From: a virus
Strand: one strand, 5' to 3'
Virus record (IMG/VR): IMGVR_UViG_3300005965_000002
Span: 1 to 64,000 of that record
Length of the DNA stretch: 64,000 nucleotides
Shown here: one piece after another, positions 7,837-64,000 of the stretch
How positions within the stretch are numbered: position 1 is the first letter of the stretch
How the letters are laid out: every line of letters starts with the position of its first letter
Notes under the pieces: generated by a model
What the model saw: only the letters and a program-made list of their open reading frames with translations
Database searches by the model: none
What the model was told of the DNA's origin: nothing
Translations under genes and position numbers: made by a program

Positions 7837-7912
7837 TGGCAGACCCGAAGGGACTCGAACCCCCAACCACTGGTTTTGGAGACCAGGACTCTACCAATTG
7901 AGCTACGGGCCT
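7837..7912 (-). tRNA. tRNA-Trp(CCA)
   Basis: Anticodon loop CTCCAAA reads CCA; acceptor AGGCCCG/CGGGTCT with G discriminator and encoded CCA; T loop TTCGAGT. Confidence 0.94.
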
Positions 7913-12159: not shown

Positions 12160-12336
12160 TTATTCCTTTACTTCTCCTGAAAATATGTGATTGTCGCATT
12201 TAACTACATCATCTTGACAGGTATCTTTTAGTACCGGATGATGCCCTCTAAATTCAGGATTGCTCATGCATTTAGGCCATTTATCAGTATGGTCACACAT
12301 AATGCATAAATTAGGTAATGTAGCTAATTCATTCAT
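12160..12336 (-). CDS. cysteine-rich small protein, 58 aa
   Basis: ATG with AGGAAG upstream, just after the tRNA-Leu(UAA) 3' end. Cysteines in NLCIMCDHTDKWPKC, DTCQDD and VKCDNH suggest a small zinc- or iron-sulfur-binding fold. Function unknown. Confidence 0.6.
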   Translation of the reverse strand: MNELATLPNLCIMCDHTDKWPKCMSNPEFRGHHPVLKDTCQDDVVKCDNHIFSGEVKE

Positions 12337-12406
12337 AAATACTTCCTGAAAAAATGGTACTCGGGACGAGATTCGAACTCGTACGGGGTTACCCCCAATG
12401 GATTTT

Positions 12407-13174
12407 CTTACTACTCTTGCTTTCACAAGCCGCTATAACGTTGTAGTCTGGACTATATCATCTCCTTAGTAAAACCTTAGGAGGGACGTGCATAGTCTCT
12501 GAACCTTCCCCATTTTAAAGGGGCTCGGCTGCTGATTACCCAATCTCTGATAGTTTTTTAACTTTCACACCCGCTGTTTTCAGCCATGTTGTAGTCATCT
12601 GAGCTATAAGGGCTTTCCAGCAATTCTCGTCCTGCTCACCTATTGATTTCTCAATAAGGGCTCTTTGATCCCTTATAAAAAAGTGAAGCCTGCCATGCTG
12701 CATCCTACTAATAATTATCATGTTACTTAAAGAGTTGTCTTTTATATCACCGTTAATATGATGAATAACTTCGTTATAAGAAAGTTTTCTCTTCAAAACT
12801 TGTTCAGCTATTACCCGGTGTATATCTTTAGAACTTCCTTTAAGTTTATTGTAATTACCAGTAGCATTGTTACCTATTTTTGAGACTTTTCTATAGCATT
12901 CTAAACAGTACTTTTGGTCTTTGTGGTTTAGCTTAATTTTTTTAGTGCATAAAACACAAAATCCCCAACCGTATCTATTTTTGTAAGCCGCTCCTCCTTT
13001 TTGAAGATAAAAATATTTACGTCTTTCTAGGTAACAAGGATTACAGTATCGTCTTCCTTTTGTTGGCGGGATCTTTTTACATTTAACACAAAGCCTCTCC
13101 ATAATAACTCCTTTTATTGGAAGGACCAATATTAGGAGATTATGGTGGACACAACGTGTCAAGTGTAAAAAACA
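12407..13174 (-). ncRNA. group I intron in tRNA-Leu(UAA)
   Basis: A 768-nt intron ending in omega-G, with core strings CAGAGACTAT and GATATAGTCCAGACTACAAC and the 3' end GAGTAGTAAG shared with the other tRNA-Leu intron. It hosts an HNH endonuclease gene on the same strand. Confidence 0.88.
12536..13102 (-). CDS. HNH homing endonuclease inside the tRNA-Leu(UAA) intron
   Basis: A 188-residue protein. The N-terminal half carries two zinc-binding cysteine clusters (CVKCKK...YCNPC and CVLCTKK...YCLEC). The C-terminal half has the HNH core VIHHINGDIKDNSLSNM, then HGRLHFF. The ATG at 13102 has GGAG upstream; longer reading enters the tRNA exon. It would cut an intronless tRNA-Leu allele to spread the intron. 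Confidence 0.88.
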   Translation of the reverse strand: MERLCVKCKKIPPTKGRRYCNPCYLERRKYFYLQKGGAAYKNRYGWGFCVLCTKKIKLNHKDQKYCLECYRKVSKIGNNATGNYNKLKGSSKDIHRVIAEQVLKRKLSYNEVIHHINGDIKDNSLSNMIIISRMQHGRLHFFIRDQRALIEKSIGEQDENCWKALIAQMTTTWLKTAGVKVKKLSEIG

Positions 13175-13230
13175 AAGTCCACAGTGTCTACCATTCCACC
13201 ACCCGAGCATGTCAAAGATCATCTCATATG

Positions 13231-15343: not shown

Positions 15344-16015
15344 CTATTGCTTATGCTTTAAAGTAAAATTGATTGTGTCATTCAGTACTGATCTATCAAG
15401 GATCATAAATCTTCCGAAACCTGTTTTACTGATTGTAGAAGAAAAACTTATTCTATCGTTAAGAGAAAATCTATTTAGTTGACCAAGCCAGTAGTCCAAC
15501 ATTTTTTGCATAGGTTTACTGTGCGTTTTTCTTATGATCACAGAGCTATCTATCATGAGGTATTGATCGCTTGCGCTAAGAAAAAGTTCTTTTTGTTCCT
15601 TTAAAACTTCCTGGGAGGATTCTGGGCTATGTTTAATTAGGTAATCTATTTTTTCAATAAAGGATTCTTCGTCACTACTGCTAAAGAAAAGAGCATCTAA
15701 ATCAGGATCAAGAGTTACTTTTTCAATTAGACTCTTTAAATGTTCAAAATTAGTAATATGTCGATTCCCGTCCAAGTAGACATTTATTTTGTATTCATTT
15801 AAGCAAAAATGAGGTTGCAGTTTGTAGTATTTGTTACTGTAAAGACCACTATTCTCTGCACTGAACTTAGGGAAGACTTTTACGTTCCAACCCGGAGCAT
15901 AAATATTAGGGGAATCCGTGATCAGAACAAAATCAAAGCCTGAATTACTAAAACGGCTCACATTCTGAGGCGCGTCATAATCCCCAAATATAGCAGTATA
16001 GATAACAGTGCGAAT
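15344..16015 (-). CDS. TOD1/MUCI70-like (DUF616) glycosyltransferase, probably starting with ATT
   Basis: A 223-residue protein. The expected family start VIYTAIFGDYD is encoded upstream of the first GTG (15961), so the true start must lie further up; the only candidate before a stop is an ATT at 16015. Other matches are DFVLITDSP, PGWNVKVF, NKYYKLQPH and a DxN-type INVYLDGNRHI. It would transfer sugar to an unknown acceptor. A class-1 promoter ends five bases before the ATT, so the transcript may be leaderless. Confidence 0.7.
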   Translation of the reverse strand: MRTVIYTAIFGDYDAPQNVSRFSNSGFDFVLITDSPNIYAPGWNVKVFPKFSAENSGLYSNKYYKLQPHFCLNEYKINVYLDGNRHITNFEHLKSLIEKVTLDPDLDALFFSSSDEESFIEKIDYLIKHSPESSQEVLKEQKELFLSASDQYLMIDSSVIIRKTHSKPMQKMLDYWLGQLNRFSLNDRISFSSTISKTGFGRFMILDRSVLNDTINFTLKHKQ

Positions 16016-16020
16016 AGTTC

Positions 16021-16049
16021 AATATACTTTTTTGAAAAGGTTATTTAAA
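16021..16049 (-). promoter_or_regulatory. promoter, TTTAAA-N16-GTATATT class
   Basis: Exact match; GTATATT is followed by GAACT and then the ATT start of the glycosyltransferase gene. Confidence 0.75.
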
Positions 16050-16250
16050 TCTAAATTTCCACCAGGGGTCACATCCCTTCCCATAAAACCGATAATCAGA
16101 AATATTCCAGGAGCAGTAGTACTTTTTATACCCTCCCCCATCCGGAACAGATTCTGATCTTCTTATCTTCCGGTTTGCCTGGTTTTTGTAGTACGCCCTG
16201 GATTTACCTTCGCTGGTTATCCAGAGGTTTTTGCGGTAAGAACGAGACAT
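16041..16250 (-). CDS. small basic protein, 69 aa
   Basis: AAGGAG before the ATG at 16250. Basic N-terminus (MSRSYRKNLWITSEGKSRAY) and a tail rich in Tyr/Trp/Gly. It follows the CCA enzyme gene. Unknown. Confidence 0.55.
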   Translation of the reverse strand: MSRSYRKNLWITSEGKSRAYYKNQANRKIRRSESVPDGGGYKKYYCSWNISDYRFYGKGCDPWWKFRFK

Positions 16251-16276: not shown

Positions 16277-17830
16277 TTACATTTTGTCCCTCCTTTTTTT
16301 CCATCTTTTCATAAGTTCTTTCTCCATATATTCTTTGGAAGGTTTCTTACCTTCTTTTTCAACGTATTCGTCCTCGATATCATTAACTATTCCAATAGCT
16401 ACTCCAACCTCAGGTCCAGCTTTTATATCGAGCAGTTCTTTTATCTCATTGCCGTTTAGGGGCGGCTTCTTCGATACAGGTACTTTTCTAGCTTGTTCTA
16501 TTTTTTCCCTTAGCATAGGAATTGAGTTACTAGGAGGTATTTTACCTAATTGATCTGCTTCAGCTAAATCGAGTAGAGAATCTACCAATTCGTCCCCAAT
16601 GCTTCTAATGAAACGACGTAATGCCTTTTCTGTAAGCTTTCCTTCTTCTAGATCTTTCGCCAAGGCATGGGGACGCATATGGTTTCTAACCATCTTTTTA
16701 ACCTTGTCGATATCTTTGACCTTAAAGTTCAGCCTCCTCATTATGCCCTCGGCTATTTCAGAGGCGGCAGCTTCATGGCCGTGGTGCTTTATTTCACCCT
16801 CCATCATAGATCTTGTTGCGGGCTTTCCAATGTCGTGCAGCAGAGCTGCCATCTGATTATTAAGACCAGGCTTTGCATTATCAAGCACCATAAGAGTGTG
16901 CGTCAATACATCACCTTCCTGGTGATGCCTCTCTGATTGCGTTTCCTCTTGTAGTGCTTTTACCTCGGGCAGTATGTGCTCAAGAAGACCGGTATCTCTC
17001 ATAAATTTAATCATAGAGGATAGTTTACCGTAATCAGCTATTTTTTCCATTTCCTCTTGGATACGCTCACTCGAAATGATATTAATTCGGTCTGCATTTC
17101 TTTTTACGGAGTCTATCATGTACTGTGGGATCTTCCAGTTGTATTTAGCTTTGAATCTCACAAGTCTGAGCATTCTCAATGGATCGCTCGTAAACATTTC
17201 ATCCAGGTTTACTTTCGGATGACCAGTAAGGTTTCCTTCTTCTATATCCTTCCGGCTACGCCCGGTAAGATCTTTTATCTCACCGGTAGATAAATCTTTT
17301 AAGAGCATGTTGACCGTAAAGTCACGCCTCATTATATCTTCCTCTACGGTGCCCGGCTCGGTTACTCTTTGCCTGGATTTAGGATCGGGAAAGGATTCCT
17401 TCTGGGAGTCAGCAAATTCTATTACTGCGCCCTGAGTCTGGTAGAGGTCACCTTTATAGTTAATGTTTTCCTTAAAGGTAATCTGCCATATCGGGTAAGA
17501 TTTTCCCATTTGATAAGGAGTCGATACAGATCCTGGATTCTCTTTGTTTAACGTAGTATTGATATATTTGGTCAGCTCTTCTGCGCCACCCCCCTTAGGG
17601 CTATCTACCATTATATCCAGGTCTTTGGCTTTTATTGAAGGATCTTTTTTTATTTTACTCAGATACTCATCGCGGACGTAACCGCCGACAGCATAAGCCT
17701 TACCTTTCCAAGGAGTGGTTGGTAGCCAATCTTTAAAAAGTCTTTCTACTTCTTTTTCTGCATCCGCAGCTACCTTTTTTAAAAGGTGGTTAGCTGCTTC
17801 TCTCAGTTTCGCTGCTGTCTTGAGTTCCAT
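16277..17830 (-). CDS. cca: CCA tRNA nucleotidyltransferase / poly(A) polymerase family
   Basis: A 517-residue class II nucleotidyltransferase. The head domain has YAVGGYVRDEYL and the DLDIMVD metal-binding aspartates; the neck has RRDFTVNMLL and DPLRMLRLVRF, typical of CCA enzymes. The C-terminal half has an HD domain (HDIGKPATRSM, then HHGHEAAA). It would add or repair CCA 3' ends. About half the tRNAs in this window lack an encoded CCA, so the enzyme has clear local substrates. It overlaps the small gene upstream. Confidence 0.9.
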   Translation of the reverse strand: MELKTAAKLREAANHLLKKVAADAEKEVERLFKDWLPTTPWKGKAYAVGGYVRDEYLSKIKKDPSIKAKDLDIMVDSPKGGGAEELTKYINTTLNKENPGSVSTPYQMGKSYPIWQITFKENINYKGDLYQTQGAVIEFADSQKESFPDPKSRQRVTEPGTVEEDIMRRDFTVNMLLKDLSTGEIKDLTGRSRKDIEEGNLTGHPKVNLDEMFTSDPLRMLRLVRFKAKYNWKIPQYMIDSVKRNADRINIISSERIQEEMEKIADYGKLSSMIKFMRDTGLLEHILPEVKALQEETQSERHHQEGDVLTHTLMVLDNAKPGLNNQMAALLHDIGKPATRSMMEGEIKHHGHEAAASEIAEGIMRRLNFKVKDIDKVKKMVRNHMRPHALAKDLEEGKLTEKALRRFIRSIGDELVDSLLDLAEADQLGKIPPSNSIPMLREKIEQARKVPVSKKPPLNGNEIKELLDIKAGPEVGVAIGIVNDIEDEYVEKEGKKPSKEYMEKELMKRWKKRRDKM

Positions 17831-30808: not shown

Positions 30809-31051
30809 TTAATACTCTACTTTATCCGTCTCAAAGGATATACCAGTTTTTTTGACGATAACAGTTACCTGTATATGCTTTAAAGGGATTGGTAAAGGCG
30901 GTAAATAAATGTCTTTTCTATACGGATCATATCTTTTAATCGAAGGAACGAATGGTAACAGTTTTAAGCGCCCCCGAAAGGATTCGAACCTTTGACTGAC
31001 TGGTTTTAGGGACCACTCCTCTACCACTGAGGTACGGGGGCTGATAGTCAT
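30809..31051 (-). CDS. unknown protein of uncertain start; frame runs through the CUA tRNA
   Basis: The C-terminal half (KRYDPYRKDIYLPPLPIPLK to KVEY) looks like real protein, but no ATG, GTG or TTG lies between it and the tRNA. The only ATG in frame is at 31051, upstream of the tRNA, with AAAGG in front. Translation would thus read the tRNA as codons from a longer transcript, or use a rare start. Confidence 0.4.
   Translation of the reverse strand: MTISPRTSVVEEWSLKPVSQRFESFRGRLKLLPFVPSIKRYDPYRKDIYLPPLPIPLKHIQVTVIVKKTGISFETDKVEY
30969..31041 (-). tRNA. tRNA with CUA anticodon (candidate amber suppressor)
   Basis: Perfect acceptor GCCCCCG/CGGGGGC with G discriminator, D stem CCTC/GAGG, T arm AAAGG-TTCGAAT-CCTTT. 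The anticodon arm TGGT-CCCTAAA-ACCA has 34-36 = CUA, which reads UAG. Position 33 is C instead of U, and there is no CCA. An in-frame UAG occurs in the methyltransferase gene at 38770. Confidence 0.75.
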
Positions 31052-38418: not shown

Positions 38419-38937
38419 TCAATTTTTAACGTTTCCTTTTTTAAACTCTACGTGATAGTTTGTAAACTGCTGCTCTGATCTGTTTTCCAAATTACTTAAT
38501 TCAGGGTGCTCGGATTTTCTATATTTACATTTTTTTATGTTTATAAATCCTAGAATCTTAGCTATATACTCTAATTCTTCAAAGGCAGGAAAATGAATGT
38601 GTCCGAATCTTTTTACATTGATTTCCTCTAAAATGCAAAATTCTCTATAACCATACCCTATATAAAGGAGCGTATCTATGGGTGGGAATGATGCCCGAAA
38701 AACACCGTTGGGTTTTAATATTCTATAGATCTCTGAAAGAAACTTCATCACGTCTATTTGCGATAAGTGCTACAATACATCTTGGCAGTATACGAAGGAA
38801 GCGGTACTATCTTTAAAGGGGTGTTGCTTTGTTATATCTGCTATAAGCTGCGTGTCCGGGTTGTCTGCGTCAAAGCGTAGGTCAACGTTTAGCCTCCCCT
38901 CTTTGTAATCGTTACCACTGCCGTAATGGATCTTCAT
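38419..38937 (-). CDS. SAM-dependent methyltransferase with an in-frame UAG codon
   Basis: From an ATG at 38937 the frame reads HYGSGNDYKEGRLNVDLRF, a truncated family-11 type start, to FVYCQDVL, then TAG (38772-38770), then HLSQIDVMKFLSEIYRILKP and on to 38419. The usual text at this point is VLEHL, so the UAG replaces a conserved Glu (or Gln) in one of the most constant family motifs, and coding continues normally on both sides. A tRNA with CUA anticodon lies at 30969-31041. Either the codon is read through or the gene is a fresh amber mutant. Confidence 0.75.
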
Positions 38938-61975: not shown

Positions 61976-64000
61976 TTAACCTTGCCATTTTTGAACTATA
62001 GGTATCCTTCGACCGATACCGAAAGCTTTTTCGTGTATCTTTAAGGTTATAGGTGCCTGATTTCTTTTAAATTCGTTTCTTCTAACCATACGACCAATCT
62101 GGTGGTAGTCGCTTGCACTCATTTGATTTTGTACCCGCAGTATCTCTGCCCAGTCTTCCCTATATGCTTCTCTTCCTTCAATAAATACCTTTAGTCTCGC
62201 ATCTAGAAGAGGATAAGGGGGCAAATTATCAGTATCCTCCTGTCCGGGAGCTAGCTCAGCGGAAGGAGCCTTATTAATGATAGACTCCGGTATTAATTCT
62301 TTATTATGAAATTCATTATAGTACCTGGCAAGCTCATAGACTTCCATCTTATAAAGATCACTTAAAGGGGCCAGGCCCCCATTCATGTCCCCGTATATTG
62401 TGCAATTATGCGTTTTTACGCCATTTACTGTGTATTCATGGTCTTTTTCTACTGTGAAATCGAACATTTCAACTTCTGTTTCCACAGTTTCTAATTTTTT
62501 AATAGCGGCGTAGTATGTCTTACTCTTAATTCTATCTTCCAAAGCAACCGTGATATCACTTTTATTTTTAATTGTATCAAGAAATTTTTTAAGAATACTT
62601 CTTCCAATCCACTTACTATTTTTATTTAAGTGCCTTCGAATAGTCCCATTTACCTTCCAATGTGTGTTGTCCTTGATGTGTGATAATTCACAGTGTGTTA
62701 TAGGAACAACATCATAGCTGGTTTTTATTTTTTTTGTGTTTTTTGTGTTATTATATAGTCTATTAGCTATACTTTTCTTCAGGATTTTAAAATTTAACAA
62801 TTTTTCTGATTCTATTGCCGGTATATACACTTCGTGTAAGTTTTTCCTGGACCTAATATAGGAAACTACCCCCAAATTCAACAAAATTAGATGTAACTTT
62901 TCTACTAATTTATAGCTAACACTATGGTATAGGATTTCTGACGTATTTTTGTTACCGTTGCTAGTACTATCTAAAAAAACACCTTCAATGAAAGGTTTTA
63001 CAAGATTTAGCGGGGCTCTCATAATGCACGCCGGTACATCTTTATTATGGGAACCATGTTCAATTCCTAAATGTCTTAAAAAACTGTTAAACTGAACACT
63101 ACATATTTCTATAAAAAAGCAACCTCTTTGGTCTTTTTTTGTAACTTTATACGAGCTTTCTTTTAGCCTTATGCTCTTAAAAAACATTACACAGAAATCA
63201 GAAACATACTTTTTAGAAGTACGTATTCTATAGATACTATCATTTATCCCGGAATAAGAGCCGTCAGCAACACAGATACCTATAAATTTAGATAGATTTT
63301 CATTCAAGTGAGATGGAAAATTAATATCTTGGGATATATAGTCAAATTCTTTTTTTTTGTAAGAAAACGTTATGTCGGTACTTCTGCCCCATATGTTTTC
63401 ACCAAAACTTACTATAGACATGTCTCCTACTTTTAGATTTTTAGCCTCTATAAATTCTTCTTTTCCATTTTTGTGTATCTTTATTTTGTGGTCTTCCGAT
63501 ATCTTTATTATATCCCCAAGTATGTTAGTAATTTTGATAAATCTATTTTTAACATTCCTAAATGAGTGCGTAACAGGCATGTCCTTGATAGAATAGGAAT
63601 TTTTTTCGTCAAAAACGCTACGAGCGCTAATTATGCCATTATCCGTAAATATGTAACTATCTCCATGGACACAATAACCCACGGACATCTCACTTTTGTT
63701 TCCTGTGGAAACTAGTAGATACCCAAATTGGTTAGAAAAAGCCATCAAAAGGAGCCCTCTTATACGGGCTTGCATGTTTTGCCTAGTCAAATCTGCGTCT
63801 GGAAGGTCGCCGACAGCGAAAAGAAAATCAGTGAAAACTTTTTCAAATATCCCTTTGATAGGTAGATTCTTTAGCTCTACTCCCAAGTTACTGCATAGCT
63901 TCTCAGAGTCCGTCACACTTCCTATACTAGAATACTCTGATGGCATTGTTACCGCAAAAACTTTGTCCGGACCAATAGCATCAGCGGCCATAGCTATTGC
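61976..64000 (-). CDS. nadE: NAD synthetase interrupted by an intein (5' end outside window)
   Basis: The C-terminal domain of NadE: AADAIGPDKVFAVTMPSEYS, QARIRGLLLMAFSNQFGYLL, STGNKSEMSVGY, then after the intein CTIYGDMNGGLAPLSDLYKM, PPYPLLDARL and a C-terminal FKRNQAPITLKI. It adenylates and amidates nicotinate adenine dinucleotide. The intein (62405-63673) sits just before the Cys of GYC in the ATP-binding core. The coding region continues beyond 64000, probably into a glutaminase domain. Confidence 0.93.
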   Translation of the reverse strand, partial: AIAMAADAIGPDKVFAVTMPSEYSSIGSVTDSEKLCSNLGVELKNLPIKGIFEKVFTDFLFAVGDLPDADLTRQNMQARIRGLLLMAFSNQFGYLLVSTGNKSEMSVGYCVHGDSYIFTDNGIISARSVFDEKNSYSIKDMPVTHSFRNVKNRFIKITNILGDIIKISEDHKIKIHKNGKEEFIEAKNLKVGDMSIVSFGENIWGRSTDITFSYKKKEFDYISQDINFPSHLNENLSKFIGICVADGSYSGINDSIYRIRTSKKYVSDFCVMFFKSIRLKESSYKVTKKDQRGCFFIEICSVQFNSFLRHLGIEHGSHNKDVPACIMRAPLNLVKPFIEGVFLDSTSNGNKNTSEILYHSVSYKLVEKLHLILLNLGVVSYIRSRKNLHEVYIPAIESEKLLNFKILKKSIANRLYNNTKNTKKIKTSYDVVPITHCELSHIKDNTHWKVNGTIRRHLNKNSKWIGRSILKKFLDTIKNKSDITVALEDRIKSKTYYAAIKKLETVETEVEMFDFTVEKDHEYTVNGVKTHNCTIYGDMNGGLAPLSDLYKMEVYELARYYNEFHNKELIPESIINKAPSAELAPGQEDTDNLPPYPLLDARLKVFIEGREAYREDWAEILRVQNQMSASDYHQIGRMVRRNEFKRNQAPITLKIHEKAFGIGRRIPIVQKWQG
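62405..63673 (-). mobile_element. intein with LAGLIDADG-type endonuclease in nadE, 423 residues
   Basis: Begins with Cys (CVHGDSYIFTDNGIISARS), block B-like ISEDHKIKIHKNG, C-terminal YTVNGVKTHN followed by Cys+1. Between them, FIGICVADGSYSG is the first LAGLIDADG helix; FIEGVFLDSTSNGN is a weaker second one. All splicing residues are present, so it should be excised. Confidence 0.92.

What the first reader, a model, noticed from the sequence alone, without database searches (positions are those of the whole stretch)
30969..31041. tRNA with CUA anticodon and C33
Acceptor, D and T arms are perfect and the 7-base loop CCCTAAA puts CUA at 34-36. A CUA tRNA decodes UAG, which fits the UAG in the 38.8-kb methyltransferase. 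C instead of the universal U33 is odd (tRNA-Thr(CGU) at 55.5 kb shares it) and may make suppression weak by design. It has its own promoter.
Basis: partly seen in the sequence, partly recalled or inferred. Interest (0 to 1): 0.8.

Follow-up and report, generated by a model that had tools for sequence, protein, structure and literature searches.

The report
Phage amber-suppressor tRNA lacking U33
A large bacterial virus that uses the ordinary genetic code carries, among some 37 tRNA genes, one tRNA built to read the stop codon UAG; its anticodon arm looks like an altered copy of a tryptophan tRNA arm, and similar odd tRNAs turn up in many other viral contigs.

Summary
The tRNA is real: 30969-31041, minus strand, Rfam tRNA 57.6 bits, CUA at 34-36, loop CCCUAAA, so C33. 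Against the phage's own tRNA-Trp, the 17-nt anticodon arm differs at three places: C27G, U33C, C35U. The phage (258,580-nt virus record) uses the standard code in the 144 kb examined: UAG ends 24 of 124 ORFs of at least 100 aa, without excess back-up stops. One conserved methyltransferase frame holds a single in-frame UAG, codon 56. C33-CUA tRNAs recur: 32 non-redundant cases in viral loci, 29 with U31-A39 and 15 with 27-43 open, against 27 of 128 open for U33-CUA and 155 of 1391 for other U33 tRNAs; the C33-U33 contrast fades when clustered at 70% identity. Best reading: a tuned, partial amber suppressor. Lone CUA tRNAs in standard-code phages are already in print; the C33/open-27-43 combination I did not find in print.

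The parts
30969..31041 (-). tRNA gene with CUA anticodon, G73, no encoded CCA
   Evidence: ARAGORN, Rfam 57.6 bits
31000..31016 (-). anticodon arm GUGGU-CCCUAAA-ACCAG; G27·G43 open, U31-A39, C33 at 31010, anticodon CUA at 31009-31007
   Evidence: CM alignment; arm comparison
38419..38937 (-). methyltransferase frame interrupted by one in-frame UAG (codon 56, bases 38770-38772); candidate target of suppression
7840..7912 (-). tRNA-Trp(CCA) with the nearest anticodon arm in the window (14 of 17 bases)
16277..17830 (-). CCA-adding enzyme (tRNA nucleotidyltransferase), would supply the missing CCA
   Evidence: Pfam PolyA_pol domains, phrog_2244
55497..55568 (-). tRNA-Thr(CGU), also C33
31053..31081 (-). 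promoter-like match, 9 of 12; not supported as a promoter

Best explanation
A phage-encoded partial amber suppressor in a phage that keeps the standard code. Its anticodon arm is of tRNA-Trp type, changed by C35U (CCA to CUA), C27G (opens the top anticodon-stem pair) and U33C, on a body with intact acceptor, D and T arms. The phage's CCA-adding enzyme would complete it, a host synthetase would charge it (amino acid unknown), and it would compete with host release factor 1 at UAG, giving partial read-through that rescues ambers such as the one in the methyltransferase while most UAGs still end translation. Shown: the gene, its anatomy, the UAG, the standard code, the CCA-enzyme gene, recurrence in other viral contigs. 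Inferred: charging, read-through, that the open 27-43 pair offsets C33, and the benefit to the phage.
For: Intact cloverleaf with CUA in the CM alignment. Arm nearest to the phage's own tRNA-Trp, 12 of 14 positions outside the anticodon, next best 9, among 36 window tRNAs. D stem C10-G25 where aligned relatives have G10 with C25 or U25: a two-sided change that keeps pairing. Conserved methyltransferase frame with one UAG inside the domain hit. UAG is otherwise a stop and UAG stops have no excess of back-up stops (8 of 24 within 5 codons, against 47 of 100 for the others), which suits a suppressor that is not strong. 27-43 open is commoner in phage CUA tRNAs than in others, 42 of 160 against 163 of 1484, most in C33-CUA, 15 of 32; open 27-43 raises stop-codon reading in E. 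coli (PMC13092985 section 20).
Against: No expression, charging or read-through data. The nearest relatives found have no CUA tRNA in the stretches read. Only one clear UAG-interrupted conserved frame was found, and a UGA-interrupted frame with a marginal hit across its stop exists too (15344-16141), so interruption need not mean suppression. The C33/open-27-43 link is not significant after clustering at 70% identity or looser. Lys(CUU) tRNAs have open 27-43 as often as CUA (11 of 35).
Confidence: 0.55

Rival explanations
1. The suppressor acts mainly on the host or its defences: made during infection, it reads through host UAG stops, or escapes tRNA-cutting defences by its altered loop, and no phage gene is its target.
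For: CUA tRNAs occur in phages without recoding and this role was proposed for them (PMC12386605, discussion part 1). Anticodon-loop changes as evasion are proposed for phage tRNAs (PMC10264068, abstract start and one passage). Most loci with CUA tRNAs here look standard-code.
Against: No host known, no test of either effect; a UAG-interrupted conserved frame exists in this phage. Position 33 and suppressors are not mentioned in the held text of PMC10264068.
Confidence: 0.2
2. A decaying or inactive tRNA: an anticodon change plus C33 and a broken 27-43 pair in a gene on its way out, unrelated to the methyltransferase UAG, which is a nonsense variant.
For: C33 and G27·G43 are departures from consensus; nearest relatives lack the gene in the stretches read; UAG stops show no sign of adaptation.
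Against: Acceptor, D and T stems are intact and the D stem shows a two-sided change; acceptor stems are 7/7 in 27 of 29 C33-CUA tRNAs, and the same loop recurs in 32 non-redundant tRNAs.
Confidence: 0.2
3. The altered arm reads something wider than UAG: UAA by C·A wobble, or a four-base UAGG with C33 as fourth anticodon base.
For: Unpinned tRNA-Trp changed to CUA reads UAA in E. coli (cited in PMC13092985). G follows 11 of 24 UAG stops.
Against: The loop has 7 bases, not 8; the methyltransferase UAG is followed by C; G after UAG may be overlap with ribosome-binding sites (inference).
Confidence: 0.05

Closest known systems
CUA suppressor tRNAs of zeta crAss-like phages without recoding (PMC12386605, passages and discussion part 1)
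   Same: CUA tRNA in a phage that still ends genes with UAG; purpose unknown
   Different: This phage has a tail sheath and is not shown to be crAss-like; position 33 and 27-43 are not mentioned in the passages I saw
CUA tRNAs of code-15 (UAG-recoded) phages (PMC13037316, passages)
   Same: Same anticodon, phage-encoded
   Different: Here UAG is not reassigned genome-wide
4-base-pair anticodon-stem tRNAs that read stop codons (PMC13092985, passages and section 20)
   Same: Open 27-43 pair, Trp-type arm, change at base 27
   Different: Those keep their own anticodon or are engineered; this one is a natural CUA tRNA with C33; the paper's text has no 'phage', 'U33' or 'C33'
E. coli su7/supU, tRNA-Trp changed to CUA (recalled)
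   Same: Trp-type anticodon arm with CUA
   Different: Here the body is not Trp-like, the 27-43 pair is open and base 33 is C

Membership tests
Amber (CUA) suppressor tRNA | Cloverleaf with CUA at 34-36 | tested here: met
Amber (CUA) suppressor tRNA | Charged and reads UAG in the cell | not testable with these tools
   needs a reporter and charging assay
UAG-recoded (code 15) phage | UAG read as an amino acid in many genes, not used as stop | tested here: not met
   24 of 124 ORFs end in UAG; ORFs hardly lengthen when UAG is read; 144 of 258.6 kb examined
4-bp anticodon-stem (unpinned) tRNA | 27-43 not paired, 28-42 to 31-39 paired | tested here: met
   G27·G43
tRNA-Pyl (ARAGORN label) | Pyrrolysine tRNA architecture and partner PylRS | tested here: not met
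   ordinary tRNA proportions: 7-nt D loop, two bases at 8-9, 6-nt variable loop; the short variable loop and compact core of tRNA-Pyl are recalled; PylRS itself was not searched
tRNA-Trp | Trp-type anticodon arm and Trp-type body | tested here: inconclusive
   arm 14 of 17 identical; acceptor differs

The most novel reading that the evidence does not exclude
Viruses of bacteria carry a recurrent class of amber-suppressor tRNA in which the near-universal U33 is C, with U31-A39 kept and the 27-43 pair often opened: two anticodon-arm settings with opposite effects that tune partial UAG reading in phages that still use UAG as a stop.
Probability: 0.25. Interest if true: 0.75.

Novelty: new variant of a known kind. 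Interest (0 to 1): 0.5.

Why it matters
Why phages with the standard code keep CUA tRNAs is an open question in print (PMC12386605). This tRNA is a concrete case with a candidate target gene and two single-base tests (C33 and G27). The survey also suggests that phage CUA tRNAs as a class favour open anticodon stems, a feature tied to stop-codon reading in E. coli.

Tried and rejected
Rejected: general UAG recoding. A phage-encoded release factor or class Ib/Ic synthetase as partner (no match; other synthetase classes not searched). A tandem-stop safeguard after UAG (no excess). UAG fusions of neighbouring genes: 3 of 24 UAG-ended ORFs run on at least 60 codons in frame, against 5 of 46 for UAA and 2 of 34 for UGA, and the family hits lie in the second parts only. 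A late/early difference in UAG stops, 2 of 22 against 22 of 102, is not significant.

Led nowhere: relatives of the 716-aa protein and of the methyltransferase in viral contigs (none confirmed); the window's 24-kb core against phage records (one 39-nt match); topoisomerase relatives (one locus, L061, not used further beyond the tRNA tally).

Limits: of 11 UAG read-through candidate frames 5 were scanned for domains, of 10 UGA ones 3, of 28 UAA ones 3. In bacterial and archaeal genomes one pattern, which also fixed A39 and C40, matched 20 stretches, of which one (L293) has a clear C33-CUA cloverleaf; no U33 control was run there. Dropped before the tally: loci of the own genome other than the window, the isolate-record loci L256-L289 and L310-L312, the cellular contigs L290-L309, and tRNAs without the four inner anticodon-stem pairs (2290 calls to 1793 unique, to 1644 after removal at 85% identity).

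Full report
What is there. The window is bases 1-64000 of a 258,580-nt virus record. ARAGORN makes 37 tRNA calls in the window; Rfam finds 38 matches in the whole record, 37 over the cut-off, all in the first 60 kb. The one in question is 30969-31041 on the minus strand, 57.6 bits. Anatomy, from direct reading: acceptor GCCCCCG/CGGGGGC, D stem CCUC/GAGG, anticodon arm GUGGU-CCCUAAA-ACCAG, 6-nt variable loop, T arm AAAGG-UUCGAAU-CCUUU, G73, no encoded CCA. The anticodon is CUA, base 33 is C, and the top anticodon-stem pair is open, G27·G43. A CCA-adding enzyme lies at 16277-17830.

Origin. Among the 36 other window tRNAs in the filtered set, the nearest anticodon arm is that of tRNA-Trp: 12 of 14 positions outside the anticodon, next best 9. 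The three differences in 17 are C27G, U33C and C35U. The body is nearer to tRNA-Arg(ACG) (73% over 71 nt), so it looks like a Trp-type arm on another body (inference). The D stem is C10-G25 where the aligned relatives have G10 with C25 or U25, a two-sided change that keeps pairing and speaks against decay.

Code of the phage. In the window 24 of 104 non-overlapping ORFs of at least 60 aa end in UAG, 46 in UAA, 34 in UGA. In the window plus four 20-kb stretches, 24 of 124 ORFs of at least 100 aa end in UAG. Reading UAG hardly lengthens ORFs. After UAG a second in-frame stop lies within 5 codons in 8 of 24, against 30 of 67 for UAA and 17 of 33 for UGA. So UAG is a normal stop. No RF-1-domain protein and no synthetase of PF00749 or PF00579 was found in the record; all three searches rang in their control genomes.

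The in-frame UAG. Frame 38419-38937 (-) is a 172-residue methyltransferase if one UAG, codon 56, is read: Pfam Methyltransf_11 4.3e-10 over residues 30-80, PHROG methyltransferases, PDB methyltransferases to 1.1e-5. The UAG stands in DVL-X-HL; Glu is usual there by recall, while the four PDB alignments shown have Phe, Gln, Leu and Leu. Without read-through the remainder starts at best at a GTG at 38751 and lacks the N-terminal part. There is no second copy in the record and no relative in viral contigs. As a caution, a UGA-split frame (15344-16141) has a marginal hit across its stop, 22.1 bits against a cut-off of 21.4. One interrupted frame is thus suggestive, not proof.

Recurrence. Pattern scans of viral contigs for the C33 loop and the U33 loop, ARAGORN on 387 loci (3.34 Mb), and removal of tRNAs at least 85% identical left 1644 tRNAs with pairs 28-42 to 31-39 formed. 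CUA with C33: 32, U31-A39 in 29, 27-43 open in 15. CUA with U33: 128, U31-A39 in 73, 27-43 open in 27. Other tRNAs with U33: 1391, open in 155; with C33: 84, open in 7. Fisher p for open 27-43, C33 against U33 within CUA: 0.006; within U31-A39 only (14 of 29 against 10 of 73): 5e-4; for U31-A39 itself: 3e-4. Averaged over single-link clusters, open 27-43 gives p = 0.017 at 75% identity, 0.16 at 70%, 1.0 at 65% and at 60%, so shared descent is not excluded. All CUA against all others: 42 of 160 against 163 of 1484, p = 5e-7, but Lys(CUU) is as high (11 of 35). An earlier, smaller tally agreed (14 of 29 against 11 of 79). Two entries with C31 (L007, L235) could be read in another register (inference). 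The 12 C33 and 61 U33 loci examined mostly look standard-code, a few U33 ones recoded.

Relatives. By tail sheath the nearest records are Tunturiibacter phage Tunturi_5 and the uncultured phage LR745208.1, each 31% identical. In the stretches read (25.5 kb with 41 tRNA calls; 49 kb with 26) no CUA tRNA was found; some tRNAs of both records lie outside these stretches or went uncalled. The best DNA matches to the tRNA among phage records are 18 records, such as tRNA-Trp of Aeromonas phages and tRNA-Thr of Stenotrophomonas phages.

Mechanism. Section 20 of PMC13092985 says that an open 27-43 pair raises UAG reading by tRNA-Thr changed to CUA and lets tRNA-Trp changed to CUA read UAA, and shows about 2.5-fold more UGA read-through for C27A tRNA-Trp in E. 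coli. The phage arm differs from its tRNA-Trp at the same base 27. C33 would be expected to disturb the U-turn; that amber suppression in yeast tolerates changes at 33 is recalled, not checked. I therefore favour a tuned, partial suppressor. The amino acid is unknown; G73 with U35 would be compatible with Gln in hosts like E. coli (recalled rules, weak).

Print. CUA tRNAs in phages without recoding, and guesses at their use, are in PMC12386605 (passages and discussion part 1). Code-15 jumbo phages: PMC13037316 (passages). Nuclease evasion by loop changes: PMC10264068 (listing and one passage). Tunturi_5 tRNAs: PMC11924767 (passages). Searches listed no paper that, by title and abstract start, treats C33 or open 27-43 in phage suppressor tRNAs; most subscription papers are not held.

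Noticed in passing
2877-3750 (-): A tRNA-Leu 5' half begins at 3750 and a matching 3' half with CCA ends near 2877; a group I intron core (2944-3239, Rfam 79 bits) lies between them, so this looks like a tRNA-Leu split in its anticodon loop by a group I intron of roughly 800 nt, missed by ARAGORN.
   Followed up: partly
12433-12677 (-): Second group I intron, 67.2 bits, near ORFs 12160-12426 and 12536-13222.
   Followed up: no
5727-5817 (-): ARAGORN's 'tRNA-Ala(cgc)' reads better as a tRNA-Ser(UGA): arm CCGGU-CUUGAAA-ACCGG.
   Followed up: no
   Followed up: partly
61976-63991 (-): NAD synthase interrupted by an intein with a LAGLIDADG-like domain.
   Followed up: no
15344-16141 (-): Frame split by a UGA with a marginal glycosyltransferase-like Pfam hit across the stop.
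   Followed up: no
L295, L299, L300, L304, L306, L307, L308: In Omnitrophota contigs a repeated element ending in a CCCTAAAACCCTTTTT-like stretch sits directly before a tRNA T-arm-like sequence; nature unknown.
   Followed up: no
L289:1333-1407: The uncultured phage LR745208.1 has a tRNA for which ARAGORN reports a four-base anticodon, ttta.
   Followed up: no
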